Source of the DNA: Rhynochetos jubatus
Lineage: Eukaryota > Chordata > Aves > Eurypygiformes > Rhynochetidae
DNA: 64,000 bases
Direction of reading: 5' to 3'
Assembly: GCA_027574665.1 (NCBI GenBank)
Contig: CM050664.1
Location: 15,960,774-16,024,773, forward strand
Shown here: piece after piece, positions 3,001 through 46,828 of the stretch
How positions within the stretch are numbered: position 1 is the first letter of the stretch
Layout: each line of letters begins with the position of its first letter
Translations under genes and position numbers: made by a program
Notes under the pieces: model-generated
What the model was told of the DNA's origin: nothing
The model's input: only the letters and a program-made list of their open reading frames with translations
The model's database searches: none

Positions 3001-3417
3001 ATACCAGTATACGGCTTTATATCGTAGTGAAAACACCTTAAGTTATTCCAGCACACAGAAGATACAGGCGTCCAAAGTATAAATATGACGGGATCTGTTC
3101 TGAACCCATTTATATGTCTTCAAAATATTTGATATCTACAGCTGTATCTTCCACTATTACTTTTATAAATATGAAGTGATAAGGAGGAACGTCATCTTAG
3201 CGCCGGCTGTCAGGTCCCAATTCTGCAGAGATGCACGTACCTCTGCGTGATTTCAGGAACAGCTCGCTCTGGCCTGGTCACGTTTCTAACAGCACGAGCA
3301 GACAATACACAGCCACCCACTGCCAGGGAATTGTAAGGGGTTAACAGGGAGAGCATTGAAGCTAATATGGACCCAGTATTTCTGTGTGCTTAAGCGCGGC
3401 TCCTCAGGCAGACTCAC
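1..3417 (-). other. CLUAP1 intron 3 (left end cut by window)
   Basis: AT-rich sequence follows the exon-3 donor (ATG then GTGAGT, at 3417 on the minus strand). I looked for the next CLUAP1 exon (human segment starting ATKAHIKLNTKK) and did not see it. A minus-strand AATAAA occurs near 1391-1400, but no exon is attached to it. Nothing else was recognised. Confidence 0.6.
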
Positions 3418-6266
3418 CATGAACTGAGCCACCGCCTTGATGAAGAAAACCCGGTCCTGTTCTGTCTCCACATCAGGAGGAATATCACTCTGAGGTTCGT
3501 ACCTGTGGAAAGAAGCACGCACAGATCCTGAGAAGAAATACACGTGCAAACTTAAAGCGAGCGCTTCATTTGTGAGGCTGAAGGCAAACAAAACAAGAGT
3601 GTGCAAGGCTGGAAATCTTTAGCTCCTACTGCAGATTGGGGGATCCAGACCCGGGAATGCACACAACGGGTTTGTGTACAAACGGCAAAAGCTGTAAAAC
3701 CTGAGACTCTTCTCTGGACAGAACTGTTACTGTGGGGTCCTGGATACATCTTTTCAGTCTGTTTCACAAATGGGCTGGCTCAAGCCTGTGGAACATTTAT
3801 TTTTTTCTAAAGTATTTCTTCTTTCTTCAGAATTCATTTACTACTTAAACCACAAACTGCTCATATAAATCAAACTGAACTGAATCGTGTGGCTTCACAA
3901 TTTAAAGCACCAGGCACACGACTGAGTTAACAGCCCCAGTCTTCACAGTGCTATGCTGAAATGACTTGTGCTAGATTACTGCTGTCAGTACGAACAAAAC
4001 CTGCCACCTTCTCCTTTAAAACGCTACTTTTCCACGCTCCCAAAATACACAAGAAAAGTTCACACTCAGACATCATTTCAAACATAGTACTTTCAAGAAT
4101 AAACAAAAAAACTTATGAAAAAGCAAATTGAAAGACTGTGAAATGCTTAAAAAAGCCCACTAGTGAAACGCAGAAACTTCTAGACATCACCAGCCTGTGG
4201 GAACCAGGGAAGAAATATAAATTCTCATAAAGGGCTTTGAGATTTTCAGCATTCAGACAGGCTAAAAAGCATCTTCGCTTTCAACTCACATTTGAGATTA
4301 TGAGCAAGGCACGTGCAAAGTACCCTCTGCTTTAAAGTGCAATTAAAAGGCTTCTAGAAGCTGGACAAGCTGTCTGTGTCGAGTGTCATTCTGACCCAGA
4401 CCAGAAAAGGATGCCAGTGTTCAGCCACTATTGGTGAAGAGCAAGTGCTCTGGCACTTCGCTATTAGGCACAGGCTCCCTGTAATCTTAAAACACAAAAG
4501 TTTAAGCTTTTAAAAGTGTCTGGGTTCATTAAAGATATTTTTCAAACAATATTCTTGTTTTCTTTCAATTGCTCTGATATTTTACTGTTACACACTATGG
4601 GGGGACCCATATTTGTATTTTTGCACGAGTTGAAAACAACCAGGCCCTCAGCGTGACAGCGATATTTTAAAGAATATTTAGTTAACTTAATCCAAGCAAT
4701 TTTGCATGGTTAAGTATTTCCCAATTTTATTACAATTGCAACAGCGTCCAGCAAATTTCTAACAGCTCAGTAATTAAACTTAATGGATACTAATTATGAA
4801 TCCAGGCCAAAAAACAGCAATCAGGCAAGTGGGTCACTGTCACATTTTCCATTGTAATATTCTACCTCAGGAGCAGGTTAAAAATCTTAGTTTTTCACTT
4901 CCGTGGGAGAAAGGAGATTATGTATAATTTGATTAGCACCTCAAGTGTCATAAATATTTATTTAACCAAAGTCTGCCAATGGGCTAAGTGGGCATAAAAC
5001 TACAACTGGATAGCAGTACATTAGTACGGTATCGTTTTATTTGTTTTCAAATGGCATGGGTGCTAGGCAACACGTAGACAGGTTGAACCAACAACAATCA
5101 TAGCAGGAAGGTAAAAACAGTTTCTTGGTAAGCTCTTACTGTATATCAGCCTGTTTGGGGTAGGAGGTCAGATACAGGCAGAAAGGTAACGGGGCTCGTA
5201 GAATATGTGAAAGATGCGGATACTTTCAAACAAGTACGTCCACCCTCAAGATGCAACCTCTGCCAGGGCTGAGGCGTTGTATTTTCTACTTCATCTACTA
5301 AAACACCTTTTTGTTGTTGTAGAAATAAACTGAAAACCTGCACACTTCACCACCACGTTTTCTATCTGATATTTAGAAAAACAGATCTCGAAGAATGACT
5401 AAATATCATTATATTCCCCTTTAATCTTCAGTTTCACAGCAGAACATCAGCTCCAAGCATACCTATTACATCCCAGCATCACTTGTTAGCCTCATCACCA
5501 ACCTTTTCACTAGCCAGAGAAGCACTTCTGAAACCAGCATGAAGTTTGGGGTATGAAAATTCTCCATCGAGATGAGTCGGGGGTAGCCCAGCGCCCTCAT
5601 CATCTCAGTAAAATCTGAAAAACAAGCAAGAGCAGGGATTCCTTCCTAAACGGCCAAGACATTACCAAGAACTCCCGTCCCCACAGCACACCGTTCATTT
5701 ACCATTAGATATGCCCTGTTCAAAGTGCTGTTAAAACAATCCTGAAGGGATTAATTTCAAAAACCAATATACTTCCATAGAAAACACGCCTGAGTTTGTA
5801 ACAAGAGATTCACTGGGCAGAGAAGTGTTAAAACGGCTTCTCTCTACAAAACGCACCATTTAAATGAAGGCAGCTATGGATGCGTTCCCCCTCCCCACCT
5901 CTATTCCGCCCTCCTAGCGCGCAGACCGCCAGGCAAGCTGAAGAAAGGCTCCGACCCCGCAGCGGCCTTCCCTACAGCCCTCGTCTGAGGCCCCCCTGAC
6001 ACCCCCAAGCGCCCCTCGCCCGCCTGCGCTACCTCCTGGACCTCGGGGGGGAACTACACAGCAAAACCTCAAGGCAAAGCGGGACGCGCTCGGCTGCTGA
6101 GGCACCAACGGGGCCGGAGACGCTCTGCAGGGCCCAGCGAGCCGCGGTAGCCTGCGGGGCCTCAGGGATGTCGAGACTCGGGGGCTACCGCGTCCCGTCC
6201 CGTCCCCCCGCGCTGGCCCCATGCCCCTGAGCGAGGCTCCTCACTCCTGAGGTCGCGGAACGACAT
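3418..6266 (-). CDS. CLUAP1: CLUAP1 (IFT38), 5' part: coding exons 1-3; gene continues off the left edge
   Basis: CLUAP1/IFT38 is a peripheral IFT-B subunit needed for intraflagellar transport and cilium assembly. Three minus-strand coding exons are visible: 6266-6245 (ATG at 6266-6264), 5614-5503 and 3502-3418. All have AG/GT borders and phases that join exactly (22+112+85 nt, 73 codons). The product begins [20 protein letters not shown] and continues through [15 protein letters not shown] and [11 protein letters not shown]. This matches the N-terminal calponin-homology-like domain of vertebrate CLUAP1, which is about 413 aa in human. I found none of the following exons between 1 and 3417, so that stretch is read as intron 3. 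A longer frame upstream of the ATG in the GC-rich 5' region is not supported. Identity is very secure; the remaining roughly 340 residues are outside the window. Confidence 0.95.
3503..5502 (-). other. CLUAP1 intron 2
   Basis: This lies between the donor at 5502 (AAAAG then GTTGGT) and the acceptor at 3503 (TTCCACAG). It is AT-rich, and no exon, repeat family or RNA gene was recognised in it. Confidence 0.7.
5615..6244 (-). other. CLUAP1 intron 1, entering the CpG island
   Basis: The intron runs from the donor after the 22-nt first coding exon (AGGA then GTGAGG) to the acceptor TTTTTCAG at 5615. Its right half, about 5,920-6,244, is CpG-rich and belongs to the promoter island. GC-rich open frames here are unsupported. 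Confidence 0.7.
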
Positions 6267-23300: not shown

Positions 23301-23679
23301 GGGTTTGTCCCACATCTTGCCCCTGCCCGTGTGATCTCCTCACTGTTGGGGCTGTACGATGGGACTCGTGTCATGGTCTGTGTGCCCTGTGCCAGGTCCA
23401 GCATCGTCCCCAGGGCCACCCTCTCCTTGTCCCCAGGGAGGGTGACCCCCGGCAGCCCACCCTGCCTGCACAGGGTTCTGCACCATGAGGGTCTGCCAGC
23501 ATGCTGGCACCCACATCTCCTGGCCCAGGGGACAGCCATTGGCATGGCAACCTGGGGGGTGAAAGACCCCTGCGACTCTCTCTGGGGCTGGGGAGGGGGC
23601 CTGGGTGCGACTAAGGGGGTCTGGACCCATGTTCCCATCACTGTTATCCCCCAGATTGGGGGGTGGACCCTCTTTCCTG
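17397..23679. other. Intergenic region, right part of the desert
   Basis: GC content rises toward the receptor gene. No exon could be supported. Small repeats present are three copies of an 11-base GGATGCTGGAG unit near 19,250-19,282, a CATTAT-rich patch at 21,558-21,600, and a purine-rich tract at 22,268-22,332. Confidence 0.55.
22268..22332 (+). repeat. Purine-rich GGCAGGA-type simple repeat
   Basis: The tract is built from imperfect GGCAGGAGGGCAGG units, almost all purine on the plus strand. It is a low-complexity sequence with no coding interpretation. Confidence 0.7.
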
Positions 23680-24045
23680 TCCCGATGTGACACAACCAGA
23701 GACCCCCGGCAGGGCTGGACCCTCCGGCTCATCCCTGCGTGATGTGACCAGGTCCCTGGGCAGGTCTGGACCACCATCTCCGTCCCCGAGTGACTAACCG
23801 GGGACCCCCGGCGGGGCTGGAGCCTCCTGCTCATCCCTGTGTGATGTGACCAGGACCCTGGGCAGGTCTGGACCCCCATCTCTGCCCCCGAGTGACCAAC
23901 CGGGGACCCCCAGCGGGGCTGGACCCTCCTGCTCATCCCTGTGTGATGTGACCAGGACCCTGGGCAGGTCTGGACCCCCATCTCTGTCCCCGAGTGACCA
24001 ACCGGGGACCCCCGGCGGGGCTGGACCCTCCTCCTCCTGTGATGC
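23680..24045. repeat. Tandem repeat, about 102-bp unit, about 3.5 copies
   Basis: The landmark GATGTGACCAGG recurs at 23741, 23842 and 23944, giving units of 101 and 102 bases with only scattered substitutions. Each unit also carries CTGGGCAGGTCTGGACC and CCGGGGACCCCC. The array ends just before the receptor's CpG island. Because 102 is a multiple of three, it keeps long spurious frames open on the minus strand. Confidence 0.85.
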
Positions 24046-24900
24046 AACGGGGGTGTCCGTGGGGGCCGTGCCGGGCGCTCGGTGGGGGCGGGAGAGGCGG
24101 TGCCCGGGACCCCCGGGGCCCGTCGGGGCGGCCCGAACCCCGGGAGGCGGTGCCGCTCCCCTTCCCGCCCCCCCCGTCGGGGCCCGGCGCTGGCGGGAGG
24201 CGGCCGCGCCGCAGACGCCGCTCGCTCGCCGCCGCGCTCGGGTCGCGGAGCCGGGGCTGCCGGTAACGCCGGGGCTGCCGGTAACACCGGGGCTGCCGCG
24301 GCCGCGGAGCCGCCGCCACACAGGGTAAGCGGGCGGGGGGAGGCGGCGGCACAGCCCGGGCGGAGCGGGACCCCCGCGGACACCGAGCGGGACCGGCCGG
24401 GGACCCCCGCGGGAGGCAGGGACCGTATTGGCCGGGGCGGGGCTCCGTGGGCGCAGGGCGGGGTGATCCGTGCTGGAATGAGGGTCCCCGGGCTGGGGTC
24501 GTCCAGCCCGGAGCAATGGGGGGCCCGGAGGGGTCCGGGCCGGGGCTGGCCGGGGAACCCCGAGGAAGGGGGGGCCGGGATGCCTCTCCCTGCGGAGCTC
24601 CCGGTGGGTGCCCCGGGCGGGACCGGGGGCTGGGGCGGGGGTCCGTGCCCGCAGGGCAATGCGGGGAGCGCTGGCTGGCGGGCAGCAGAGCGGGGGGATG
24701 GAGGGGCACGGCGGGTCCCAGGGGACCCCCCGGAGAGGTCTCCTTGCCTTCCCTGGGGCTGTCCCTTCAGCCCCGGCCCCTTCCCGGGGCTCGGCGGCCA
24801 CGGGGCGAGCAGCGGTGACACGGGGCCTGTCACGTCGGTTACCGGGAGCAAACGGCCCCCTCCTGCCAGCCGCCCGGGCCAGGAGGTGCGAGCCGCCCCT
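24046..24900 (+). promoter_or_regulatory. CpG-island promoter and 5' noncoding exon of the glucagon-family receptor
   Basis: Extreme CpG density begins right after the tandem repeat. A strong donor (CACAGG then GTAAGC, exon end 24324) suggests a 5' noncoding exon. It would splice to the acceptor CTCTCTCGCCCAG at 25029, which opens the exon holding the ATG. The presumed exon includes three copies of a CCGGGGCTGCCGGTAAC-like unit near 24,250-24,300. The start site itself is not determined. Confidence 0.6.
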
Positions 24901-25096
24901 GCCCCCTGCCCGCTGCTCTGCGCGGCTCCCCGGGGCTTGGGCTCGGGCGGGGACGCGCCCCGGGGCCGTGGCAGCCCAGGACGAGCCCAGGCGGAGCCGT
25001 GCCGTGCTCAGCTCCCCTCTCTCGCCCAGCATCCAGGTCCCCAGCGCAGCCCGGGGACGCGCCCTGGCACCGGGAGCACTGGCCGCGGGGACAGCT

Positions 25097-28000
25097 ATGA
25101 GGGACGTGCCGGGCTCTGGGTACCGGCGGGGCATCCTGCATCTTGCCTGGATGTGCCTCTTCTCCTCCGTGCCGGTAAGGGCCGAGCCGGGGTTGGCACC
25201 TCCGGGATCCATCGCCGACGGGCTCCGTCCTGGCTCCATCGCACGTTCCTGTCTGGCTGGAGGAAGCCAGCACGCGGCAGTTCCCGGGGCGGGGGGCAGG
25301 CAGCCGGCCCGGGGGGCGCCGGGTGATGCGGGGGGCGCGGGCAGCCAGCGCGGGCTCCGTGCCCCGGTGTACCGCTGCCGGCCGGGGCTCTGACCTGGCC
25401 CTGGGCTCACAGCACGGCGGCGCCAGGGTGCTGGAGAAGACCTTCGAGGAGTGGATGCGGTACCGTGACGAGTGCTCGAGGAGGATGGCGAGCGAGCCCT
25501 ACCCGGCAGGTACCGCTGTGCCCCGGCTGGGGGCCACACGGGGGTCACGCTGGGGACATGCGAAGCCAGGCGACGGCTGGGCTGGGTTTTATCCCACCTC
25601 CAGCATCCCCTGTGCTGGTTGCCCACGGAGGGATGAGCCAGGGGCTGTCGGGTGCCTCCACAGCTCGGGTGGATGGATGCCCAAAGCTGGGATGCCCAGG
25701 GTCTGAGGCTGGCATGGGGGTACCCAGGCCCTGTCTGGGGGGGACACCAGCCTCCTTGGAGGTGCTGGCAGTGGGCTGGGATGGCTGTGGCCATGCCACC
25801 AGTGTCTGACCATTGGCTTTTCCACCCCCTTGCTGCTGTGGGAAGGGCTCTTCTGCAACCGGACGTTCGACATGTATGCCTGCTGGCCTGACGGGAGCCC
25901 TGGCACCACCGTCAACATCTCCTGCCCCTTCTACCTGCCCTGGTTTGAGAAAGGTGACGATGACCCTCTGCCACCCCAGAGCTGGAGGCCAGGGCTGAGC
26001 CCATGCCAGGGGGGGAAGAGGCTCTCGGGGTTTCCCCTCCTGCCTGCTGCCAGGGGGGAGAGGGACCCATGAGCTGGCCCAGGGGTAAGGGGACCTGTGC
26101 GGCACAGAGCAGAAACAGCTCGTGCCCCACTCATGCCTGCCCTGGAAGAGGGTCTTTGGGGCTGAGCAGAGTCTGATCCATCGTCCCAGGAGAGGGGTTT
26201 AGGGGAGCCCAAGGGGAATGCATGGGTGCTCTGTGTCCACAGTGAAAAACGGGCTGGTGAGCCGCAGGTGCGGTGCCGACGGGCAGTGGGTGACGGTGAA
26301 TGGCAGCCAGCCCTGGCGGGACTACTCACAGTGCGAGGAGGAGATGGAGTCCACTGCTGAGGAGGTGGGGTGCTCGGCCCGGCCACAGCGGCTGGGCAGG
26401 GATGGGCAGGGGCACCCCGGCCGCCCCTGCGCTCACCAGCGCGGTGTTCGCCTGCAGGAGGGGGCCCGCCGACTGATGGTGAGCTTCAAGGTGCTCTACA
26501 CCGTGGGGTACTCACTGTCACTCCTCACCCTCATCTCTGCCCTGCTCGTCCTCACCATCTTCAGGTAGGACAGCAGGGGGATGCAATCCTGCCCCTCGTC
26601 CTTCCTGGCCTGTGATGGCCAAGCCATGGAGTGTCCCCCCAGCCTCCCAACACCCTCACCCTCGGCAGGAAACTCCGCTGCACCAGGAATTACATCCATG
26701 CCAACCTCTTTGCCTCCTTCGGGCTGCGGGCGACCTCGGTGATGGTGAAGGATGCGCTGCTGGAGAGGCGCTGGGGCATGGAGGTGGTGCAGGTGGCTGA
26801 CTGGGAAGCCCTGCTGAGCCACGAGGCAAGCGCTGCCACCCCCTGGGGCGGGTTGCTGCTCGAGGCTGGGCTGCAATCTGGATGGGGACCCTCACCCTGG
26901 GGTGAGGTGCAGCTCCAGGCATTCCTTGGGTGAGCTCTTGGGGTGCCTGTGCCCTGTTGGGTGAGCTCTTGGGGTGCCCATGTGCCCTGTGGGCAAGCTC
27001 GTGGGGTGCCCGTACTGCCCAAGCACCCAGCGGGTAAGTTCTTGGGATACCCTTGCACTCAGTGGTCGAGCTTTTGGTATGCCCATGCTACCCATACGCC
27101 CTCTGGGAAAGCTCTCAGGGTGCCCTTGCACCCAGTGAGTGAACTCTTAGGGTGCCCATGCACCTGGTGGAAAAGCTCTTGAGGTGCCCATACACCTGCT
27201 GGGCAAGCTTTTGTGGTACCATTGCTGCCCCTGCACCTGCTGGGTGAGCTTTTGAGATACCCTTGCACCCAGAGGGCGAGCTCTCGGGGTGCCTGTGCTG
27301 CCCGTGGCACCTCTGGGTGGGCTCTCGGGGTGCCTGGCATCCTGCCAGCCTCACGGTGGGTCTCCTCTGGCAGGCGGCGCTGGGCTGCCGTGCGGCGCAG
27401 GTGCTGATGCAGTACTGCATCCTGGCCAACCACTACTGGTTCCTGGTGGAAGCCGTCTACCTCTACAAGCTGCTCATCGGGGCCGTCTTCTCCGAGAAGA
27501 ACTACTACAGGCTCTACCTCTACCTGGGCTGGGGTAGGGGCCACCCAGGGGCGCGAGGGGGACGGTGCCCGGTGTTGGCAAGCACCATGGCCCAAAGCGG
27601 CCCCGGGAGGGTGCGGGGTGGGGGTGTCCCCCGCCCCAGGGCTGGTTTCTCAGCTCAGGCAAGTGCTTGGTTTTACAGGGTTTGCTGTGTGACTTGCAGG
27701 GACGCCCGTGGTGTTCGTGGTGCCCTGGATGGCCGCCAAGTACCTGAAGGAGAATGCAGAGTGAGTGGGGAGGGATGGAGGGTCCCGCCGGGATGGCTCA
27801 GCCCTGGGCTGGGGTTTGGATTCAGCTGGGGAGCAGGACGGAGGCTGCTGTGGGTCCCTGACGCTCTCGGGCTCATCCTGCACCCCCCGACACGGTGCGA
27901 TGGTGCGGCTCTCCGTGTCTCCCTGGGCAGGTGCTGGGCGCTAAACGAGAACATGGCTTACTGGTGGATCATCCGCATCCCCATCCTGCTCGCCTCCCTG

Positions 28001-29403
28001 GTAGGGGGGCACGCGCCAGCCCCACACCTTTTCGAAGAACAGGAGCTGGGGCCCTGGCCCCCAGCCCCGGGGGCAGCTCCCAGCACGGCCCGAGGCGGGG
28101 GTGGCCTCCAAAGCATCGTGCTAGTCACGCGTGGGGTTGTGTTGTGCAGTAGCTTGCTGACCCCCACATGTGGGGAGCCAGAGACTCCCAGGCTCTGAGG
28201 GTCGACATGGTGGGGAGGGTGTGCTGAGCCCCAGAGAAGGATGCACCCTGCTGCTTCCTAACCAGAATTTTGGGATGGTGGGAGGGGATGAAGAGCATCC
28301 CAGGGGACCTGGCACCATACGGCTTGTCTCCCGTGGTCCCCAAGAGCATATACCGCAGTCAGGGTGTGCTGCACGGGGTAGGGGGTGCTGGGCTACGCGT
28401 GCCCCTGCACTGTCTCCCCCCAGATCAACCTGCTGATCTTCATGCGGATCCTCAAGGTGATCCTGGCCAAGCTCCGTGCCAACCAGAAAGGCTACGCAGA
28501 CTACAAGCTGCGGTGAGCCGTGAGCGAGGGGGCGGCCGGGGGTCCTGCCAGGTCCTGATCCCAGAGCCACATCACCCAACCCCCGCCGCTCGCACACGTC
28601 ATTACGCAACCATCCCTAGATAACTGGGGCTCGGCCCCGCCTGTGCCCCAGCCCTTCCGTACTCGCTGCCGGAGGGGACCCTTATGCTCTTTCAGGCTGG
28701 CCAAAGCCACGCTCACCCTCATCCCCCTCTTCGGGATCCACGAGGTCGTCTTCATCTTCGCCACCGACGAGCAAACCACAGGCATCCTGCGCTACGTCAA
28801 GGTGTTCTTCACCCTCTTCCTCAACTCCTTCCAGGTGAGGTGGGACCGTGACACGTCCTTGCTCTGCCCTGGGCACCATGCAGCAAGAATTATGGGGTCC
28901 CTCTTCCAGCTCCCTCTCCCCATGGTGCCCCTGTCTGCGTCTGAGTGCGGGGAGGGGGACACCGGCTCTCCCACCCCCACCCGTGACACGGAGTGATTGA
29001 ATCCTGCTGCTCCACGCTGGGGATGCTCTCCAGGGTGGCAGTGGCAGGGGGACCTCAGTCCCAAAAGCAGCCTGGGGGGGACTAAGGCAGTCCCAGCCTT
29101 GGGAGGGGGGTGGCGGTGGGGGCTCACCCCCTGCTCTCCCTCCAGGGCTTCTTGGTGGCCGTGCTGTACTGCTTCGCCAACAAGGAGGTACGTACCCACT
29201 GCAGCTTCTGCCCAGCGTGGAGGCTCGGCCCTGCCACTGTCCCTGGCTTTGCCATCCCACCCCTGGGCCGCTCCGTCCACGGGGAGGGCCCGGCTGGGGA
29301 AAAGCCCCCGCTCTCTCCTTCGCCGTGGCAGGTGAAGTCAGAGATGAAGAAGAAGTGGCAGCTCTGGAAGCTCGACCACCCGGCGCTCTGCTGTGCCCAG
29401 TGA
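25097..29403 (+). CDS. GCGLR: Glucagon-family class B GPCR, probably glucagon-like receptor GCGLR (GRLR), 433 aa, 13 coding exons
   Basis: This is a Gs-type peptide-hormone receptor of the plasma membrane. Exons: 25097-25174, 25413-25509, 25846-25953, 26243-26364, 26458-26564, 26669-26825, 27374-27533, 27700-27760, 27931-28000, 28424-28512, 28696-28834, 29146-29187, 29332-29403. Phases join throughout (1302 nt). A signal peptide covers residues 1-26. The hormone-binding domain has the six family cysteines (47, 62, 71, 85, 104, 125), [14 protein letters not shown] and N-glycosylation sites. Seven membrane segments follow, with [43 protein letters not shown] and [20 protein letters not shown]. 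It mixes traits of GCGR, GLP1R and GIPR without fitting any one. With a CLUAP1/ANKS3 neighbourhood unlike theirs, this points to GCGLR, known in chicken and frog and absent from mammals. The cytoplasmic tail is short, ending HPALCCAQ. Family membership is certain; the subfamily is inference. Confidence 0.85.
26925..27340. repeat. Minisatellite in receptor intron 6
   Basis: About a dozen imperfect units of roughly 30-45 bases occur, each built around GGGTGAGCTCTTGGGGTGCC followed by a short C-rich stretch such as CATGCACC. Units differ in length and sequence. The array fills most of the intron between 26825 and 27374. Confidence 0.85.
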
Positions 29404-30800
29404 TGCAGTGGCTGGCCCCACAGAGCCAGGGGAGAGGGGGCCTGGCTGGAGGGCAGGGTCCGCGGGGAAGCCACGTGCCACCTGGGACGGGACCAGCATC
29501 ACGGCTTTGCCACTCCTGAGCGCACTGGAGGGGACACCCCCCGCTGCGGTCCGAGGGGGAGGCAGGCACCCTTGGCCCGTATCGGCCATCGCCAGCTCCT
29601 CACAAGAGCCTCCCGTTGCTTGGGCTCTGTGCTGCGTGGGGCGGCACGCCGGGGCTTTCTGCCACTGCCCGAGCCGCCCGTACGCCATCAACTACCTCCG
29701 CCGGCACCCGCCAGAGACCCCCTGCCCACCTGCACCAGGCTGGGCAGCTGCAGGGCGGACGGCCCTGCCAGCACTGCTCCCACCCGGGCACCTCCGCGCT
29801 CCCCCAGCCCTGCGCAAGGGCCGTCTCACCACCCTGGAGCTCCGGCCACCCGTCCCAGTCCCCTGCCGAGCGAAGAGCTGCCTCCGCACCCTCACCACCC
29901 CCAGCACCGACACCGAGCGTGGCATCAGCTCCCGGCTCGCTGCACCCAACGGCGGTTTCGTCCTCTCCGCCCCCTCCTGCAGCAGCCCCCGAGCCCCCGC
30001 GCAGTCGGCACAGCCAAGGCAGCACGCACGCACCTTCCCGCTGCTGTATTTGCCCCGCGCTGAGGGTGGCGCCGCTTCCCCTTCCGTGTCCGTGGAAAAC
30101 CAGGAGACAGAGGGAAGGACTTCGGAGCATCAGCTCCCTGGGGGCTGAGCTGACCTCGGCGTCCCAGGCCCAGCATCCAGCCTGGCCACATCCCCCTCGG
30201 CCACAGGGAGAGCTCAGGCCCCGTTTGGCTGGCAGAAGGCTGGGGTTTCTGAGCCCTGTGGCGCAGCTGCTGGGGTTCGAGACGTTTGCTTTCCAGTGGG
30301 GTGCCAAACCCCCCGCTGCCCGCCCTGGCAAACCCCAGGATGCCCAGCAGCATCGCCGCCGTGCGAGCGAGGCCCCCGAGGCTGCATGTCCAGCTTACAG
30401 CCCCTTTTCTGGGGCTGGTGCTCTCCACCCCACTGCCCCAGCCCCCCCGCTCTTACCTTCCGTACAGGGCAGCTGCGCCGCCCGGTCTGGTTCCCACCGC
30501 GCCAACGCTTCACCCTGCGGAAAAGGCCACCCCGGCGGGCGGGAGAAGGCAGCTTTGCTCGCCAGCCTGGTGCAAGCGGACACAGGCGGGGCTCCCCCTC
30601 CAGCCCCCCTCGCTGCCAGGCCAGGGCAGAGCCTCCTGCAGAATCAGTGTCTCAAGGAGGGCTGCCTCCAGCAGGGAAAGGAGAAAGGCTGGGTTCAAGG
30701 CCGGAGTCCTTCCCGGGTGGATGCAACCCCCGTGACACCATTTTGCACATTACCTCTCTTTTCAGATGTAAATAAACGTTTATTTTTCAGCAAGGGGAGC
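29404..30800 (+). other. Presumed 3' UTR of the receptor gene
   Basis: GC-rich sequence runs from the stop codon (29401-29403) to the first plus-strand AATAAA at 30771-30776. Long open frames here (such as a 439-codon one at 29616-30935) reflect GC content and lack family features. The length of the UTR is inferred from the signal only. Confidence 0.5.
30771..30784. terminator. Palindromic double poly(A) signal
   Basis: AATAAACGTTTATT is a perfect 14-base palindrome giving an AATAAA hexamer on both strands. On the plus strand it would end the receptor transcript. On the minus strand it could serve a long ANKS3 3' UTR. The dual use is inference. Confidence 0.6.
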
Positions 30801-37500: not shown

Positions 37501-40500
37501 TCTCTCCTCTTACTGTAAAGCATCACCTGTAAGGCTGCCAATGACCTCTGACCTCTGTACAGCCCAAATCCCCTTTCCAAGTGGGAATGACTTACTTGAT
37601 CTGATCCAGCAGGACTCCAGCGTCCTTGGTGATGGCCTGCACCTCTCTGAGCTGGCACTGGATGGCATTCCAGGCCTCATCCCGCTCCATCAAACAGCTC
37701 TCAGCCACTGCACGCAGCTTCTGCTCCTGGCACACCTGGCCCTTCATCACCTCCACCTCCTCACACCTCTGCAGCAGAGCAGAATGGGGAGTTAGGCGGG
37801 GAGTACTGCACCTCACTCCTACCTGCCTGCTGACACCTCCCAGAGTCCCTGCTATCCAATGGCTTAGGCACTGGCAAAGACCAATGAGGGACTTGGCCTG
37901 TTTTGTCTCAAACAATTGGAGTTGGAAAGTGTTTCCTAGGGGGAAAGGAGGAGAGTGACAGATGGAGCCATGTGGAGACAGGGCAACGAGCTGTTGCTGT
38001 TGTTCCCTACTTTTTGGGGTAGATTCACCTCCCTCATCACCCACCGAGTGGGACGAGACAGGCAGCCAGAGGGTTCCTGCAAAAGTGCACCCAACTCAGT
38101 GGGAACGGAAGCTGGATAAGGCTTGTACACTGAACAGTTTCCCTCCACACCAAGGCCAGCCCCACAGTTACGACTCCCCCTGCTCTCCGTTTGCAGAGAT
38201 ACTCCGTAGGCCCAAATCAGCACAAGTCTGTTCGCTAACGGCTGCACCGCTTCACCTGAAAAATGACACTCTTGAAAAAGAGTTGATATTCAATTCCTCC
38301 TACTCACCCTTTCAGTCTCAGGTGGATGGGAAAGAGACACAAAGGATTCACAGGCATGGAGCACAGAGGATGAAGAGTGGGCAAGTTGTACTTGCGGTGT
38401 TACCTGATCGACCTGACACCAAGTGTGTTACTGAAAGTTGTGTTTTTTCCTTCACCCCGAGCCATTAAAGGCACAACACAAAGATATGCTACCGATCGCT
38501 TGTTGGGTGTGAGCAGCTCATAGCAGACTTCCTACCTTGTGCAGCTGAATGGCCAATTCCTGCATCTCAGCCTCCAGCCGATCCGCGTAGGCCAGCTCCA
38601 GGGCATCGCTGGGCGGCCGAGCGCTGCTGTGCCATCGGGCGATGGCAGAAGTCATCTTCCTCTTTGGTCCAAAGAGCCTGGCGGGAGAATGGCAAACTGT
38701 CAGGGACCAAACACTGCACCACCCGCCCCTGAGCCCCGAGACCTCTGCAATCTCCTGGTTCCTCCAAGGCACCTCCAAAACCAGGAGTCTGTTACAGCCA
38801 ACAATGAGGGGATCTCAAAATTGTGTGGGAGACGGCCAGAACAGAAAAGCACTCGCTGGCTAAACCATCCTGAGCAGGTCACGTGGTTTGTAAGGGGAAA
38901 GATGAGAACTACGTTACAGACACTCACGTGATGCCTATTTCCTTCAGGTCACTCTCTGTGAGGGTCAGGAAGATCCGGAGGTCAACATCTTGCTCCTCAA
39001 ACACTTGCAGGTACTTCAGGCACCCAATCTGCTCCAGGAATGTTGCCAGGTCCTGCAGTCCATCCAAACAAAACTTATTTATAGCCTCACAAACAAAAGC
39101 ATTACCATTCCTCTTAACCATAAACATGTGCTTCCTCGTGTTGCTGTTACACCTTCCTGGGTTCCAGCAGCAGCCATGACTTCCCCGGATAACTGCCCTT
39201 CTCCGTAGTCACACAACACAACACGACTGGCCTCTTGTGACAAACGCAGAGAATACAGATACCAACATCTACCCTCGCCCATGCCACAGCCATGCTTGGT
39301 CTCCAACACCCCTCCAAGCAACAGCAACACCTAAACAAACAGTTCTTTGAACAAGAACTTGCTGTTTCACAAGTGTTTAAGTTTGGGCAGAGGTCTGGAA
39401 TCAGACACAGCTTCCCTTTTATCTGAGAAGGCCAAGAGAGCAGCTTAGGCAGCCCTGGAAAAGCCTCCCACGCTTAGCACAGTGGCACAGCCGGCATTAC
39501 TTCCAAGACAACCTTCTGTGCATAGTTACCTGGGGCCCTGTATAGGCAGGGGCATCAGGAAGGATTAGGTGCTGGCTAGAGCCCCCAGCTTTCCCTGGGC
39601 AGTGGGTCCACTGGCTGTCACTGTTGCTGTAGCGGTTCTTCATCTTAAAGCTCTTGGCTTGTTTCCGACAAGGGGGGCTGTTTGCATGGTCAGAATCCTG
39701 GAGAAAGAAAACACCACAAAACACAAAGGCTAAGGACAATTGTGCAAAGATGCCAGGATCAGTACAGGTAACACATGCAGACTCCAAGTCCCAAGATCTA
39801 AATCCAGGCAGTGGTCCACAAACACAAGGACCAACAAAGCCCTTATTATTAAGGGCTGAGCCAAGTCCCTTCCACGATGGCAGCTTGGTACCATGAGATG
39901 GTATCAGGCTCTTGCAATCCTAGCTTTGGAAGCAACACGCTAGAGCAAAGAGCAATGCTGAATCCTCCCTGAACCACTACAATGCACCGAAAGTCTACCT
40001 GTGAGAAGTTCCTCAAGATACAGAGGACTTGAGCTCAAGTTCAGCTATACCCTTCTGGTCATCAGCCGCAGAGCTGGTGTTGAACCATGGAGCAAACCCT
40101 AACCTCTTCCCCTTTCTGTACTCCAGAAACGCCAACGCAGCACTGCTGTGCTGCTCTAAATCTTACTATACTGCTTGCTCTCTCTTCACGCTCAGGGAGT
40201 GACCCAGCTCTAGCAAGTCACGTCCTTTCTTGACCACCACCTAGTCTGCAAAGCACTTAAAAATTACTGACCAGCCATCAACAACCTACTGTAGTGTGAA
40301 TGTGCTCTGAGAGTTGGCTACTAGCCAGAGAAACAAGCCAATCCATAATCTTCAAGTACAGAAGCTGGTTTTCTTGTCCCTGTAATACCACCTCTCCTCA
40401 CCCAGCCTGGTACTACAGCCTCCGGCGGGGGTAGAGTCATAGCAGGCTGCAGAAGGGTGACCGCGCACTGGCCAAGCTGGAGGCAGAGAGAGAAAAAGCA

Positions 40501-43500
40501 AAAACCTCACCTCATTGCTTTCCAAGGAGCCCTCGCTGCTGACTCCCAGGGCTTTGGTCAGGCATTCACTGCTGCTGCTGCTCCTGATGGTTGCCAAGTT
40601 GTTGATGAAAATGTTATCCTCTGGAAAGGAATACGAAAAAAGTTTGAGGTCCAGCTTCCTTATGTTCAGTGCTGCTTTTGCTACACAAAACCTGCTGAGG
40701 TGCAAAGGAAGGAGAAACCCGGAGCAAGGTTTCACACACAGCATCAAGACAAGACAATTCTGACAGCAATATCGCATGTCAGATCCCAGGCACCAATCCT
40801 TCTCCAAGTCTGTTTAGTACCTGTGTAGTGGGGGTTGGTAGTGGTGGGTGGTTTCTGTGAGAAGCTGCTAGAAGCTCCCATGGCTCCAAGTCAGACCCAA
40901 CTCTGGCCACAGCTGAGCCAATTAGTGCTTCTGTGATTAACTTATTTCAGATGGGAAAACCAGCAAAGAGGGGAGTGGGATGGGAAAGAGAACTCTGCAG
41001 ACACCCAGGTCAGTGCGGAAAGGCGGGGAGAAGGTGCCCGGAACAGAGGTTCCCCTGCAGCCTGTGGTGAGAGGGGAACAAGCCAAGGGGTTGGTCTCAC
41101 ATCCAGGTGTGCACCGCAAGCCAGATTATCTTCCAAGACAGGTTCCAAGACTTACCCCGGCTGCTGCTGCTCTCCACATCCTGCTCATTAATTGGAGATG
41201 TAACGTCTCGGTTCCGGATATCACCTGCTTCACAACTGCCATCGTCTTTGAAGGTAACATAGCCCTGAGGAGGGACCTGCTCTGTGTGCAAGAGGAAGGC
41301 AGAACAAAGCAAGGTCAGGATACAAGTTCCAGGGAGCCTCCAGCAGGAAAAGCAACCACTCAAGGATTTGAGAATAATCAAAAACAGAGACTGTCATCTC
41401 AACCAGCAGGTTTTGTTCAAAAAAGCTGACACAAACTGAGCAATGCATATGCCTATGGCCTCCCACACACACACATCAACAGTACTTCATTTAGATAGTT
41501 GCACTGAAATACTCAGAGGAAGCAGCCTCACAGCAGAGATGCACCTTAAATAGCAGCTTTCACCATCTCCTCTTCATACCCACATTACCCAAGGGGAAAA
41601 ACATCTGCTTGAGAGAGCAATGTGCCAGCTACGTCCCATCCCCAGCCAAGCACACCCTGTAAAGCCAACCCCTCCACATCTGTTTTAAAGCACTAGCAGC
41701 ACCCCACTATCGTTTCAGACACTGACAGTCTCATTTCATTTCAGCCACTGCCTGTCAGATAGTATGTCTCTGTATTTGACACGGTCCTGCATGACATCCT
41801 CATCTCTAAAATGGATGTGATGGGTGGACCACTCAGTGGATAAGGAACTGGCTGGATGGTCGCGCACAAAGAGTTGTGGTCTAATGGCTCCGTGTCCAAG
41901 TGCAGACCAGGGAGAAGTGGCGTTCCTCAGGGGTCCGTGTTGGGACCAGTATTTAACATTTCTCAGGGGGACAGATGGTGGGATTGAGTGCACCCTCAGC
42001 AAGTTTGCCAATGACATGAAGCTGCATGAAGGGAAGGGATGCCATCCAGAGGGACCTGGACAGGCTGGAGAGGTGGGCCTGTGCCAATCACATGGCATTT
42101 AACAAGGCCAAGTGCAAGGTCCTGCACCTGGGTCAGGGTAATCCCAGCACAAGGACAGGCTGGGTGGAGAATGGATGGAGAGCAGCCCTGAGGAGAAGGA
42201 CTTGGGGGTACTGGTGGATGAGAAGCCGGACATGAGCCGGCCGTGTGCGCTGGCAGCCCAGAAAGCTAACCGTATCCTGGGCTGTATCCAGGGCAGCGTT
42301 GCCAGCAGGGCGAGGGAGGGGATTCTCTCCCTCTACTCTGCTCACATGAGACCTCACCTGGAGTTCTGTGTCCAGCTCTGGGCCCCCAACATCAGAAGGG
42401 CATCGACCAGTTGGAGCGAGTCCAGAGGAGGCCACGAAGATGCTCTGAGGACTGGAGCCCCTCTGCCATGGGGACAGGCTGAGAGAGTTGGGGGTGTTCA
42501 GCCTGGAGAAGGGAAGGCTCCGGGGAGACCTTATAGCACCTTCCAGTGCCTGAAGGGGCTACAAGAAAGCTGGAGAGGGACTTTCTACAAGGGCAGGAAC
42601 TGACAGGACAAGGGGTAATGGATTTAAATTGACAGAGGGGAGATTGAAATTAGGGATATCAGGAAGAAATTCTTCCTGGAGAGGGTGGGGAGGCACTGGG
42701 ACAGGTTGCCCAGAGAAGTTGTGGGTGTCCCATCCCTGGAAGTGTCCAAGGCCAGGCTGGATGAGGCCTGGAGCAACCTGGTCTAGTGGAAGGTGTCCCT
42801 GTCCATGGCGGTGGGGTTGGAACTAGATGGTCTGTAAGTTCCCTTCCAACTCAAACCAGTCTGTGATTCTATGATGATCAAGAGAATGAATCAAACTTTG
42901 AACATCCATTTAAGTCCATACTCTTGGCTGTTTTAGACAACTAGGTAATCAGTCTGAGAAATACCTACAGCTATGTCCCACACACAAGAAAACAAAGCTC
43001 ACACCACTGCATCCAGGGGTTGATGTCTGAACTGGGATGATCTTTCTCTTGGCCTACTGCAAGGGTTTTACAATCTCATTTTTAGTAGTATTTCAAACAT
43101 CAAGGAAGACAAAACTTGACAGGTCTAGGAGCAGCAAGTTCACATTCATGATCAACAATGACTTGGCCTATGTGACCACTCCCTGTGTGGAAGCTTGAGG
43201 AGGGCTTTTGAGCCTACCTCAAAAAGGGAACCTGGACTGTTCAAGAATCAGGGGAACAGTAATTGAGGTAAGAGCAGCATCTGTTCCTCAGAAATGCTGC
43301 ATTCCTCAATATCCAGCCCTGACAAGAGAGTTCAAGGGGTTTACTTTTTAAACCAGAGACTGGATAGCTTTGTACGATGCCGTTCGCTGTTTCTGTACAA
43401 GCCAGACATGAATCCCAAATCAAAAGAAAAAAATCATTGCACAGAAATAGCTGCAAAGCATTTCAGAGACTTCAAAGGGCTCTCAATTAGGCTTCTAACT

Positions 43501-46500
43501 GTTCTTACCATAGCAAGACTGCTTCTTTCCCCCAATTCCAACTGCTGTTATCTTAGCCAAAGCCTGAGGCCCATCATGGATGCTGGGACCCTTGGTCCTA
43601 CGAACAGGTCTCTGTCTCTGGGGTGCAGAACATGATTCATCTGAGGAACTCAGCTCTTCGTATTTTCCTGTAGATCAAACAAAGGTTGTTAGCAGCACAG
43701 TAATTTATCCACTTTATTTGCTACTAGTCCTGTAAGTGCAGTGGAAATTAAAAAGGAAATGGTAGAAGAGGGAGGGTGGAAGTTTAACTAGGTCAGGAAA
43801 GGGCCAGTAGACACAAAAAATGATTGTTGTATCCATGCCTCTTCCATCCTCAGAAATGCTGGAATTTCCAGGACAGACCATCTAGTACTACCCCATACAC
43901 ACAGTAAACACTTTGACAACATCCAACACCTCTCTTCAGCTTCTGTCTTAAAATGAATAAGCTAAACCATCTGTTACCTGGACCCCTGCAGAAGACCTTG
44001 GGCACTGGGGCTGCGTGCAAATCTATCAACCCCACAATCTTGGTATGTCCATACTTCATGGCTAGTGTCCGTGCAGTGGCTCCAGTGTTATCTCTGACAT
44101 CTGCTTTCACTCCCTGTTGAAAAACACATATTTAAAATGCATGTATCAGGGAGCATGATAGAAAAAAAAAAAAATCCAAGAGAGCCAAAGACTTGTCTTA
44201 GTTCCTCCAAGTCCATCAGGAATACAGGCTCACCTTCGATAGGCAACAAGGTATTAGCAGACCTTGAACTGCCTTTCTGGTTATCCATAGTTTCCGCAGT
44301 CCCAGAATGCCAAGTAGCCCTGATATATTGCCCTTGTGCATCGCCGTGATAAGCTAGTTTATCTGACAAATATTTTGCACTGCTGCCTCCTTCTGGAAGT
44401 AAGCTGGACTGGTTAAACGGGATACTTTAAAAAAATCATTTAACATCAAGAAGCATGCTTTTGGAGACAGAAGGTGCCCACTAGCCCGAACATGCAAGCC
44501 TGTAAACACTACACAGTGATTACCGCTTCAGCTGTTTGCTAATTCAATCATTATCAAGTTAAATCTGGACCATTAGACCTCACTCCTATTCAGGCAATGC
44601 CAGAGCACTAGCCTCCAGAAAGCACATACTTTCAGAACAGTCCTGGAAGTCTGGGACTTCAGATCAGAGGTGTCTGTCATCAAGCATAACGCTGTAAAAA
44701 GTCTAGTGTCAAACTCGTGGGTTTGGTGGATTTGGTGCAAAACTGTACACTTTCAGCTTCAGAGAGCTGTCTAGACACTCACGTGGTTGAGAAGGTACTG
44801 AACAATTATCTCATGGCCAGAAGCAGCTGCTTCCATCAGTGGTGTATATCCATACACTGGCTCCCTAGAGAGAAAACAAACGTGCACACATGGACCAGGA
44901 TAATCAAAGCTGACACATGCTGCAGTCTTTGCCATACCCTAACGGGGCGCCTCCGCCCTCAGCTGATCACACACCGTGCCACGCGTTGGCTGTTCTGCTG
45001 CATTCTGGTCTAGCCCAGTAAAACTCCCGAGATTCAGGAAACGTTACTCCATTGGCTGCACAGCAACAGATTGCTCTTCCAGTCACAGATCTGCCTTTCA
45101 GTGGCCTAATCAGTTTTGCAGGAGCTAACAAAGCAAGAACCTTTTGTTGACCTCAGGCAATTCAATATGCATAAATGTACAGGCAGTTCCAAAGGCACGG
45201 GAATGCACGGCACACCTCAAAAAACCAGACACCGAACTCTGAGTACCCAGAAAATTCAATACAAAGACTTGAAGACTTGCAAGTGCACTTCAGTTCAGAA
45301 GGCCTTGCACCTGTTTGCTTTCAGAGTTTAACCCATAATTAAAGAAGCAGTAAATCTAATTTCTCTTGATCTAGCTAAATGAACAGTGGCAACACAGGCA
45401 GACTTTACTGCTCAGTTTGCAGGTCACCTGATCTTGTACTAGCTAATGGTGTGCCATACTTCCCGAGGTACAGGAGGAAAGACAAAAGCAGGCATCCTCT
45501 CCCTGTCCGTGTTTGAGTGTGTTCATGTGCCAACTGCTACTTTCATGTCTAAAACAAGAAATATCTTTTGAGAAAATGAAGTGACAGATTCCTCCTTACT
45601 TGCAGTTGGCATTTGCCCCATTGTCCAGCAAGAACTTGACCATCTGCTGATGTCCGGCGCTGGTGCAGTGAAATAAGGCAGTCCAACCATGAATATCCTT
45701 CATCTCCAGCTCTGCACCTTGCTTCAAGAGAACAGAGAAGGTTCTTTACTGCATCCCCTCTGCTGTGATACCAAGAGAGTTTAAATCCCTGTCAGGAAGC
45801 TCAACTGGCAACAGAACACACCACACACTGCTTGCAACTGATGGAGAATCCTACCCTGTGCATTTAAACTACATATTGTGGCTTTATCTATTTATTATGG
45901 GATACACACCTGTAGAAGAAAGTAAGCAACACTTTCATTTCCACAGCTGGAAGCCAGCATGAGCGGCGTCTGCCCTTCTGGTGTTGGGATGTTCACATTC
46001 ACTCCTGCTTCCAGCAGCAGGTGCACAATGGTGTCGTGGCCGATGTAGGAGGCATACATCAGTGGGGTCCAGCCACCGCAATTCCTCTTATTTAAATCCA
46101 CATCTCCACTAAATAACAGAGAAAAGAATTCAGCTGAACTACTCTCCTGGAGCTGTAGATCACAGTAGGTTCCTGCAGCCTCTTGCTACCATCACTGTAT
46201 TGAAAGAAGGCTAAGAAAAAAATCCTAGCACTGAAGCTTGCACAGGAATTCCTACCAGCTCTAGAACAACTTCCACCAATTCACTAAGGAGATCCAGCGA
46301 TGTGCCCCTGTTGCAATATCAGACCAACCTGTACAGCAGCCAGTGAAAAAACAAAACTGGTAGTGAGTAACCACAGACCTGTGTCCTCCCTGGCCCCTTC
46401 TTACCGCTGAATACACTCCTGCACCACTTCATACTGGCCGACGGAGGAGGCCGTGTGCAAGTCCAGGGGAACGTCCAGCTCTTCCCGGCAGATCATCTGA

Positions 46501-46574
46501 CCGACCCCATGCCACATGGACAGACTGCGGCTCAGCAGCTCCGACTCACTGGCTTCATCGCTCAGCTCCGACAT
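34585..46574 (-). CDS. ANKS3: ANKS3, ankyrin repeat and SAM domain protein 3, complete, 15 coding exons, 659 aa
   Basis: ANKS3 is a ciliary/renal scaffold whose SAM domain binds ANKS6 and links to BICC1 and NEK kinases of the nephronophthisis module. Exons (minus): 46574-46405, 46108-45910, 45721-45600, 44864-44783, 44113-43978, 43667-43509, 41281-41156, 40620-40511, 39697-39530, 39052-38928, 38677-38536, 37768-37596, 36748-36648, 35786-35703, 34667-34585. All borders are AG/GT and phases sum to 660 codons with stop; human ANKS3 has 656 aa. The start is [20 protein letters not shown]. Ankyrin repeats span about residues 35-235 ([20 protein letters not shown]). Then come a serine-rich linker with [16 protein letters not shown], a SAM domain from about 424 ([20 protein letters not shown]), a coiled coil near 505-575 and a C-terminal [10 protein letters not shown] segment. 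The last exon encodes [14 protein letters not shown], matching human QALCLVTQSLEKLQ. Identity is secure. Confidence 0.96.
34690..35260 (+). repeat. CR1 LINE fragment with a G21 tract, in the last ANKS3 intron
   Basis: A 5'-truncated CR1 of a different subfamily from the other copies. Markers are GAGGCCGCACCTCGAATCCTG, CTGGGGGTGTTCAGCCTGGA and, near the end, GGGCTTGATGATCCTAAAGG. It lies antisense to ANKS3, fills about half of the 34668-35702 intron and stops about 23 bases from the last acceptor. Confidence 0.9.
34953..34973 (+). repeat. Uninterrupted run of 21 G
   Basis: A homopolymer inside the CR1 copy, within a longer stretch that includes GGAGGGTGC before it and TGGGT after it. It may fold into a G-quadruplex, and its length in an assembly may be unreliable. 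Confidence 0.9.
41735..42875 (+). repeat. CR1 LINE fragment, about 1.1 kb, with reverse-transcriptase remnants
   Basis: The longest CR1 copy, in the ANKS3 intron between 43508 and 41282 and antisense to the gene. Its left half shows decayed reverse-transcriptase end sequence in shifting frames (for example [14 protein letters not shown] and [17 protein letters not shown] at 42.09-42.15 kb), with stops and frameshifts. The right half is the 3' UTR-like segment ending TGTGATTCTATGATGA, the CR1 8-bp tail. It has no intact protein. Confidence 0.93.
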
Positions 46575-46828
46575 CCCGCTCTGAGTAACCAAAGCAAAGC
46601 GGGACTTTAAGGTGCTGATCTCCACTTCCTATAGAACCCGGCATCACCCCTTGGCACTACAGCTTCAAGGTGCCATGGGCTCGGAAGGTGAGGTCATCTC
46701 AGAGGTAGTGTGTTTCAAACTCTTACCTCTACTTTGATCGCCTCCTTAGCCTGAAGCAGTAAGACTTGCTGAGGAGGGTTTTTCTGACAGTTCTTTCTTG
46801 CTGCAGTGAACTCTGGGATTTGAATACA
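46405..46828 (-). other. Upstream ANKS3 exon 46828-46727 and 5' part of the start exon
   Basis: The exon carrying the ANKS3 ATG begins at 46628 after TTCTATAG. A further strong exon is bounded by a T-rich acceptor ending CCAG at 46829 and a donor GAG/GTAAGA after 46727. It is 102 nt, exactly 34 codons. The ANKS3 frame stays open through both (52 codons before the ATG) with no in-frame ATG. It is most likely 5' UTR, but a coding N-terminal extension is not excluded. Confidence 0.6.

What the first reader, a model, noticed from the sequence alone, without database searches (positions are those of the whole stretch)
25097..29403. A complete glucagon-family receptor of a branch that mammals lost
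The 13-exon gene has every hallmark of the GCGR/GLP1R/GIPR/GLP2R clade but fits none cleanly. The ligand domain resembles GLP1R ([15 protein letters not shown]) and TM1/TM2 resemble GIPR and GCGR. TM3-TM7 have distinct blocks ([36 protein letters not shown]). This is what the glucagon-like receptor (GCGLR/GRLR), described in chicken and frog, would look like. That receptor is linked in chicken to pituitary TSH control.
Basis: partly seen in the sequence, partly recalled or inferred. Interest (0 to 1): 0.75.

Follow-up and report, generated by a model that had tools for sequence, protein, structure and literature searches.

The report
Glucagon-like receptor that mammals lost
This bird gene encodes a complete cell-surface receptor of the glucagon family, almost certainly the one known in chicken as GCGLR and reported absent from mammals; the same genome carries its hormone and four sister receptors, so it is a well-supported new copy of a known gene, not a new kind of thing.

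Summary
Thirteen coding exons at 25097-29403 (+) join in frame into an intact 433-aa class B1 receptor with hormone-receptor and seven-helix domains, six ectodomain cysteines and the activation residues checked. The host genome could be searched and holds five glucagon-subfamily loci: the window gene plus GCGR, GLP1R, GLP2R and GIPR orthologs. In a tree each human-bird pair is strongly supported and the window protein lies outside all four; tests made after seeing the tree reject it as sister of the bird GCGR, GLP1R and GLP2R clearly and of the bird GIPR more weakly. So it is a fifth lineage older than the human-bird split, as published for GCGLR/GCRPR/GRLR. The hormone GCGL is also present, identical to chicken's over 29 of 29 residues. 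No GCGLR reference sequence was available, so the name rests on elimination, the ligand and the literature. Side results: the gene lies between CLUAP1 and ANKS3 on a contig sharing paralogs with the GCGR contig (three of three marker families tried), which favours genome duplication over the published tandem duplication; and this bird keeps an apparently intact GIPR, reported lost in birds.

The parts
24001..25500 (.). CpG-island promoter region of the receptor gene
   Evidence: GC 0.73-0.82 and CpG o/e 0.90, 0.65 and 0.78 in three 500-base bins; the other 15 bins of 22001-31000 have o/e 0.28-0.69
25030..25096 (+). probable 5' UTR part of the first coding exon; a non-coding exon ending at 24324 may be spliced to it (donor at 24325, acceptor ending at 25029)
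   Evidence: splice-site sequence only; prediction
25097..25174 (+). coding exon 1: signal peptide
25413..25509 (+). coding exon 2: ectodomain helix, Cys 1
25846..25953 (+). coding exon 3: hormone-receptor domain ([16 protein letters not shown])
26243..26364 (+). coding exon 4: end of ectodomain (Cys 5 and 6)
26458..26564 (+). coding exon 5: TM1
26669..26825 (+). coding exon 6: TM2 and ECL1; followed by a GC-AG intron
26826..27373 (+). intron 6 (GC-AG), holding a degenerate minisatellite at 26926-27334
27374..27533 (+). coding exon 7: TM3 and start of TM4
27700..27760 (+). coding exon 8: TM4
27931..28000 (+). coding exon 9: ECL2 Cys and TM5
28424..28512 (+). coding exon 10: TM5 and ICL3
28696..28834 (+). 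coding exon 11: TM6, ECL3, TM7
29146..29187 (+). coding exon 12: end of TM7 (LYCFANKE)
29332..29403 (+). coding exon 13: helix 8, short tail and stop
30771..30776 (+). AATAAA poly(A) signal candidate (another at 30939)
3394..6266 (-). neighbour: 5' exons of CLUAP1 from its start codon; the gene runs further left
   Evidence: Pfam Cluap1 8.9e-17, PDB 8bd7 CLUAP1 1e-12, start codon at 6266
37595..46628 (-). neighbour: ANKS3 (SAM, ankyrin repeats, coiled coil)
   Evidence: PDB 4nj8 ANKS3 SAM 3.8e-22; Pfam Ank and SAM
54837..62441 (+). neighbour: DAAP1 (human C16orf71 by recall)
   Evidence: Pfam DAAP1 8.8e-13, 48.5 bits against a cut-off of 27

Best explanation
The gene is this bird's ortholog of the glucagon-like receptor (GCGLR, also GCRPR or GRLR). 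Shown here: an intact class B1 receptor, a fifth lineage of the glucagon subfamily, with its hormone encoded in the same genome. Inferred from chicken work: the alpha-helical C-terminal half of GCGL docks in the six-cysteine ectodomain, its N terminus enters the seven-helix core, the receptor couples to Gs and raises cAMP, and in the pituitary this promotes TSH expression and release, with a possible role in feeding. Further inference: the tail is very short (22 residues after NKEV, one Ser/Thr), so arrestin control through a phosphorylated tail should be weaker than at GCGR.
For: Intact gene with 13 joined frames; HRM and 7tm_2 domains; six Cys, H2.50, E3.50, T6.42, Y7.57, P6.47 and the TM3-ECL2 Cys pair present. 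Separate GCGR, GLP1R, GLP2R and GIPR loci in the same genome. Tree: human-bird pairs at UFBoot 99-100 and SH-aLRT 98-100, window outside all four; AU tests. GCGL 29 of 29 identical to the chicken GCRP in Table 1 of PMC3679108. Literature: GCGLR present in chicken and not found in mammals (PMC3679108, PMC8312260), Gs-coupled with EC50 0.87 nM for chicken GCRP, TSH.
Against: No GCGLR sequence from any species was in the tree, so orthology to chicken GCGLR is not directly shown. PMC3679108 says GCRPR lies on one chromosome with GCGR and GLP2R in many vertebrates; here GCGR and GLP2R share C22 while this gene is on C19. The branch joining it to GCGR and GIPR has 90/92 support and its order among them is unresolved (60/38). 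A clade with the whole GCGR, GIPR or GLP1R pair is not rejected (p 0.143, 0.368, 0.118). Rejection as sister of the bird GIPR is modest (p 0.014), the bird GIPR row has unusual composition, the bird GLP1R and GLP2R rows fill only 45% of the columns, and the AU tests were chosen after the tree was seen. No expression data. Y of the YTVGY motif is residue 149, against 146 implied by the chicken construct, a small N-terminal difference.
Confidence: 0.95

Rival explanations
1. It is the bird's GCGR, made to look odd by fast evolution in a GC-rich region.
For: GCGR is the best PDB match and the nearest row by path in the tree.
Against: A separate GCGR on C22 is 74% identical to human GCGR and has a long tail; the window protein is 53%. 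AU p 2e-9 for window with bird GCGR.
Confidence: 0.01
2. It is a GIPR ortholog (Park et al. found GCRPR nearest to GIPR, and medaka and fugu GCRPRs were once called GIPR).
For: It joins the GCGR/GIPR part of the tree; a clade with the GIPR pair is not rejected (p 0.368).
Against: A different locus, C32, pairs with human GIPR at 99/98 and lies by OPA3 and an F-box gene that I read as FBXO46, with symplekin on the same contig. The window gene lies by CLUAP1 and ANKS3. AU p 0.014 for window with bird GIPR.
Confidence: 0.02
3. It is a sixth, undescribed glucagon-subfamily receptor and the true GCGLR was missed or is absent from the assembly.
For: No GCGLR reference could be compared; 11 of the 22 more distant match rows were not examined.
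Against: Five loci match the hormone-domain exon at E 0.01; the known family has five members in non-mammals; the ligand GCGL is kept, which implies a receptor.
Confidence: 0.02
4. It is a decaying pseudogene.
For: GC-AG intron next to a minisatellite; unusually short tail.
Against: No stop or frameshift in 433 codons, usable splice sites at all 12 introns, the activation residues checked are kept, CpG-island promoter.
Confidence: 0.02

Closest known systems
Chicken GCGLR / GCRPR / GRLR (Irwin & Prentice 2011 and Wang 2012, seen as reference titles; Park 2013, PMC3679108, partly read)
   Same: Class B1 glucagon-subfamily lineage distinct from GCGR, GLP1R, GLP2R and GIPR; found in birds and not mammals; its peptide is encoded identically in this genome
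GCGR
   Same: Best PDB match; equal exon lengths for exons 4, 5, 8, 9, 10 and 12 in this bird's GCGR
   Different: 53-55% identity; K2.60 is R and D7.42 is T; tail much shorter
GIPR
   Same: Falls in the same part of the tree; R2.60
   Different: Separate GIPR locus on C32; 49-51% identity
GLP1R
   Same: Exon 3 of the hormone domain is strikingly similar (75% over 36 aa)
   Different: 51% overall to human GLP1R; separate locus on C3

Membership tests
Class B1 (secretin) GPCR | Hormone-receptor domain plus 7tm_2 | tested here: met
   HRM 75 bits and 7tm_2 253 bits, both above the cut-off
Class B1 (secretin) GPCR | Six ectodomain Cys, H2.50/E3.50/T6.42/Y7.57 network, TM3-ECL2 Cys pair | tested here: met
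   all present (positions chosen from recalled knowledge)
Glucagon-receptor subfamily | Closer to GCGR/GLP1R/GIPR/GLP2R than to the secretin receptor | tested here: met
   (489-385 against 298 bits); tree
GCGLR | Separate lineage outside GCGR, GLP1R, GLP2R and GIPR | tested here: met
GCGLR | Groups with chicken, anole or Xenopus GCGLR | not testable with these tools
   no such sequence in the collections or papers that I reached
GCGLR | Cognate peptide GCGL/GCRP (KMK at 16-18) in the same genome | tested here: met
   C36:2291231-2291317, 29 of 29
GCGLR | Only such locus in the genome | tested here: met
   five hormone-domain-exon loci at E 0.01, the other four assigned; 11 of 22 more distant rows not examined
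GCGLR | Same chromosome as GCGR and GLP2R (Park 2013, 'many vertebrates') | tested here: not met
   C19 against C22; given in the paper as a tendency, not as a defining feature
GCGLR | Nanomolar response to GCGL through Gs | not testable with these tools
   needs a cell assay
GCGR / GLP1R / GLP2R / GIPR | Inside the respective human-bird ortholog clade, as sister of the bird member | tested here: not met
   p 2e-9, 3e-5, 4e-64, 0.014

The most novel reading that the evidence does not exclude
GCGLR is the whole-genome-duplication twin of GCGR rather than a tandem copy: it sits 0.57 Mb from MGRN1 on a contig with a GRIN2 and a SoxE gene, while GCGR sits on a contig with RNF157, a GRIN2 and a SoxE gene. 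Together with a retained GIPR, this bird would carry the complete ancestral five-receptor, five-hormone set, and its nearly tail-less GCGLR would signal through Gs with little tail-driven arrestin control.
Probability: 0.5. Interest if true: 0.5.

Novelty: new member of a known kind. Interest (0 to 1): 0.3.

Why it matters
Mammals, and so drug discovery on incretin receptors, work with four receptors; this genome shows the fifth intact beside four sisters and its hormone. That makes it a clean reference for how ligand selectivity split, and for the TSH-releasing role of GCGL in birds. The chromosome evidence bears on an unsettled point, tandem or genome duplication. The GIPR found on the way questions the statement that birds lost GIPR while keeping GIP.

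Tried and rejected
Rejected: GCGR, GLP1R, GLP2R and GIPR identity (tree, AU tests, separate loci). Rejected: pseudogene. Locus L011 scored highest with the window query (74 bits in two pieces, others 35-38) but its exons read as a CRH-receptor type (my reading by recall). Led nowhere: Rfam and ARAGORN (bacterial settings) on the window, no hits; literature search for GCGLR synteny with ANKS3 or CLUAP1; search for a chicken GCGLR sequence or primers; SNRPD2 next to GIPR (recalled sequence, no hit at E 1); Pfam on two ORFs that look like CR1 (no match). No structure was predicted.

Full report
What is there. Joining the 13 exons at 25097-29403 (+) gives 1302 coding bases with no internal stop and a 433-aa protein. 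Eleven introns are GT-AG and intron 6 is GC-AG. The protein carries a hormone-receptor domain and a secretin-type seven-helix domain. Checked against human GCGR numbering, the six ectodomain cysteines, the TM3-ECL2 cysteine pair and the class B activation residues are present (the residue list is recalled knowledge). A CpG island covers the start and an AATAAA lies at 30771.

Which genome. The window is C19:15960774-16024773 of a 1.331-Gb assembly in 148 contigs. I infer a bird: the hormones encoded there match the chicken ones printed in PMC3679108 Table 1, namely GCGL 29 of 29, GLP-1 30 of 30, glucagon 28 of 29, GLP-2 31 of 33 and GIP 34 of 34 over the exon part seen. It is probably not chicken, since glucagon and GLP-2 differ. 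The species is not known to me.

The sister receptors. A six-frame search of the whole genome with the window protein gave 51 rows at E 0.01; 29 fall in five loci: C19 (the window), C22 near 1.06 Mb, C22 near 17.05 Mb, C3 near 33.08 Mb and C32 near 0.22 Mb. The hormone-domain exon matched at these five loci only. Compared with human receptors, C22 at 1.06 Mb is best matched by GCGR (521 bits, window protein 376), C32 by GIPR (379, window 315), the C3 pieces by GLP1R (4 of 4, one of them narrowly, 67 against 65 for the window protein) and the C22 17-Mb pieces by GLP2R (4 of 4). Of the other 22 rows, 11 lie in six loci that I fetched, all six closer to the secretin receptor; 11 rows were not examined.

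The tree. Ten rows, none dropped: the window, bird GCGR (exons 1-13 but for about five residues), bird GIPR (exons 2-13), bird GLP1R and GLP2R (four exons each), human GCGR, GLP1R, GIPR and GLP2R, and human SCTR as outgroup. The four human-bird pairs have UFBoot/SH-aLRT of 100/100 (GCGR), 99/98 (GIPR), 100/99 (GLP1R) and 100/99 (GLP2R); the window protein is outside all four and joins GCGR plus GIPR at 90/92 with unresolved order (60/38). AU tests, chosen after the tree was seen, reject it as sister of bird GCGR (2e-9), GLP1R (3.1e-5), GLP2R (3.8e-64) and GIPR (0.0137); they do not reject a clade with the whole GCGR pair (0.143), GIPR pair (0.368) or GLP1R pair (0.118). A tree of eight rows, without the two partial ones, places it alike (86/87 with GCGR plus GIPR). 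So the window gene split off before mammals and birds parted, and it is none of the four human receptors compared.

Identity. Identity over aligned positions: bird GCGR to human GCGR 74%, bird GLP1R to human 81%, bird GLP2R to human 74%, bird GIPR to human 55%; the window protein reaches 53% with human GCGR, 51% with GLP1R, 51% with GIPR and 45% with GLP2R. A fifth receptor of this subfamily, GCGLR/GCRPR/GRLR, is described as present in chicken, anole, Xenopus and several teleosts and absent from mammals (PMC3679108, parts 1 and 2 of 7 of the text and passages; PMC8312260, passages). By elimination, and because its hormone is conserved to the letter in this genome, the window gene is GCGLR. 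I could not compare it with a GCGLR sequence, because none is held in the collections that I reached.

How it works. In transfected cells chicken GCRPR responds to chicken GCRP with EC50 0.87 nM through Gs, against 14-120 nM for exendin-4 and the other family peptides (PMC3679108 Table 2). GCGL is cited as a stimulator of pituitary TSH in chicken (passages in PMC6727040 and PMC8276247; the primary papers Wang 2012 and Huang 2014 were seen only as reference titles). A reference title in PMC10525316 reports that a novel glucagon-like peptide given into the brain suppresses feeding in chicks. For the window gene these functions are inferred from orthology.

A possible difference. After NKEV the protein has 22 residues with a single Ser/Thr, while this bird's GCGR has a long tail. 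A weaker tail-dependent arrestin response is a prediction. Against it: in a GCGR whose tail was replaced by that of V2R, helix 8 had a major role in the tail-type pose of beta-arrestin 1 (PMC10447241, passages), and helix 8 is kept here. Whether other birds' GCGLR share the short tail was not tested.

Neighbourhood and origin. Left of the gene lie 5' exons of CLUAP1, right of it ANKS3 and DAAP1. In human these lie in 16p13.3 (recall), unlike the neighbourhoods of GCGR (17q25), GLP2R (17p13), GLP1R (6p21) and GIPR (19q13) (recall). The window's contig C19 and the GCGR/GLP2R contig C22 share paralogs in three of three marker families tried: GRIN2 (C19 and C22, also C5; the C22 match is weak, 30 bits against a cut-off of 25), SoxE (C19, C22, C5) and MGRN1/RNF157 (C19 at 15.37-15.42 Mb and C22 at 11.25 Mb); the gene names are by recall. 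[quoted passage not shown] It is not proof: the three families were chosen because I expected them there.

GIPR in this bird. The C32 locus has exons 2-13 with open frames and plausible splice sites (exon 1 not found; the start of exon 4 is my reading), pairs with human GIPR (99/98), and lies beside OPA3 (Pfam 1.4e-22) and an F-box gene that I read as FBXO46, with symplekin on the same contig 3 Mb away. PMC8312260 states that Gipr was lost in birds. In (15 of 67 papers listed; 6 of 6 listed) I saw no paper describing an avian GIPR gene; PMC12803832 injects GIP in broilers and the passages I saw rest GIPR on mammalian work; [quoted passage not shown]

Verdict. It is a known receptor type in one more bird, useful as a clean reference and with two side results worth following. 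Interest 0.3.

Noticed in passing
G000 C32:216628-222832 (-), L017; flanks L042:2551-3327 and L043:1700-4006: An apparently intact GIPR ortholog (exons 2-13) in a bird, between OPA3 and an F-box gene read as FBXO46 on a GC-rich stretch, although Gipr is reported lost in birds (PMC8312260). GIP is also present at C28:5593389.
   Followed up: partly
G000 C36:2291231-2291317 (+), L029: GCGL/GCRP hormone exon, 29 of 29 identical to chicken; only one copy found although two were reported in chicken (PMC3679108).
   Followed up: partly
[quoted passage not shown] glucagon has Thr at position 16 where chicken has Ser.
   Followed up: no
window 26826-27373: Intron 6 uses a GC donor and holds a degenerate minisatellite (units of about 31-32, 41 and 210 bases) close to that donor.
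   Followed up: no
window 23677-24036: A 102-base tandem repeat, 3.5 copies, 91% matches, just upstream of the CpG-island promoter.
   Followed up: no
window 42142-42603 (+) and 58266-58334 (+): Fragments that look like the 3' end of a CR1 retrotransposon reverse transcriptase (by recall; no Pfam match for either).
   Followed up: partly
window 3394-6266 and 37595-62441: CLUAP1 lies close to ANKS3/DAAP1 here, with MGRN1 about 0.6 Mb away on the same contig; by recall CLUAP1 and ANKS3 are over 1 Mb apart in human 16p13.3, so the order was rearranged in one lineage.
   Followed up: partly
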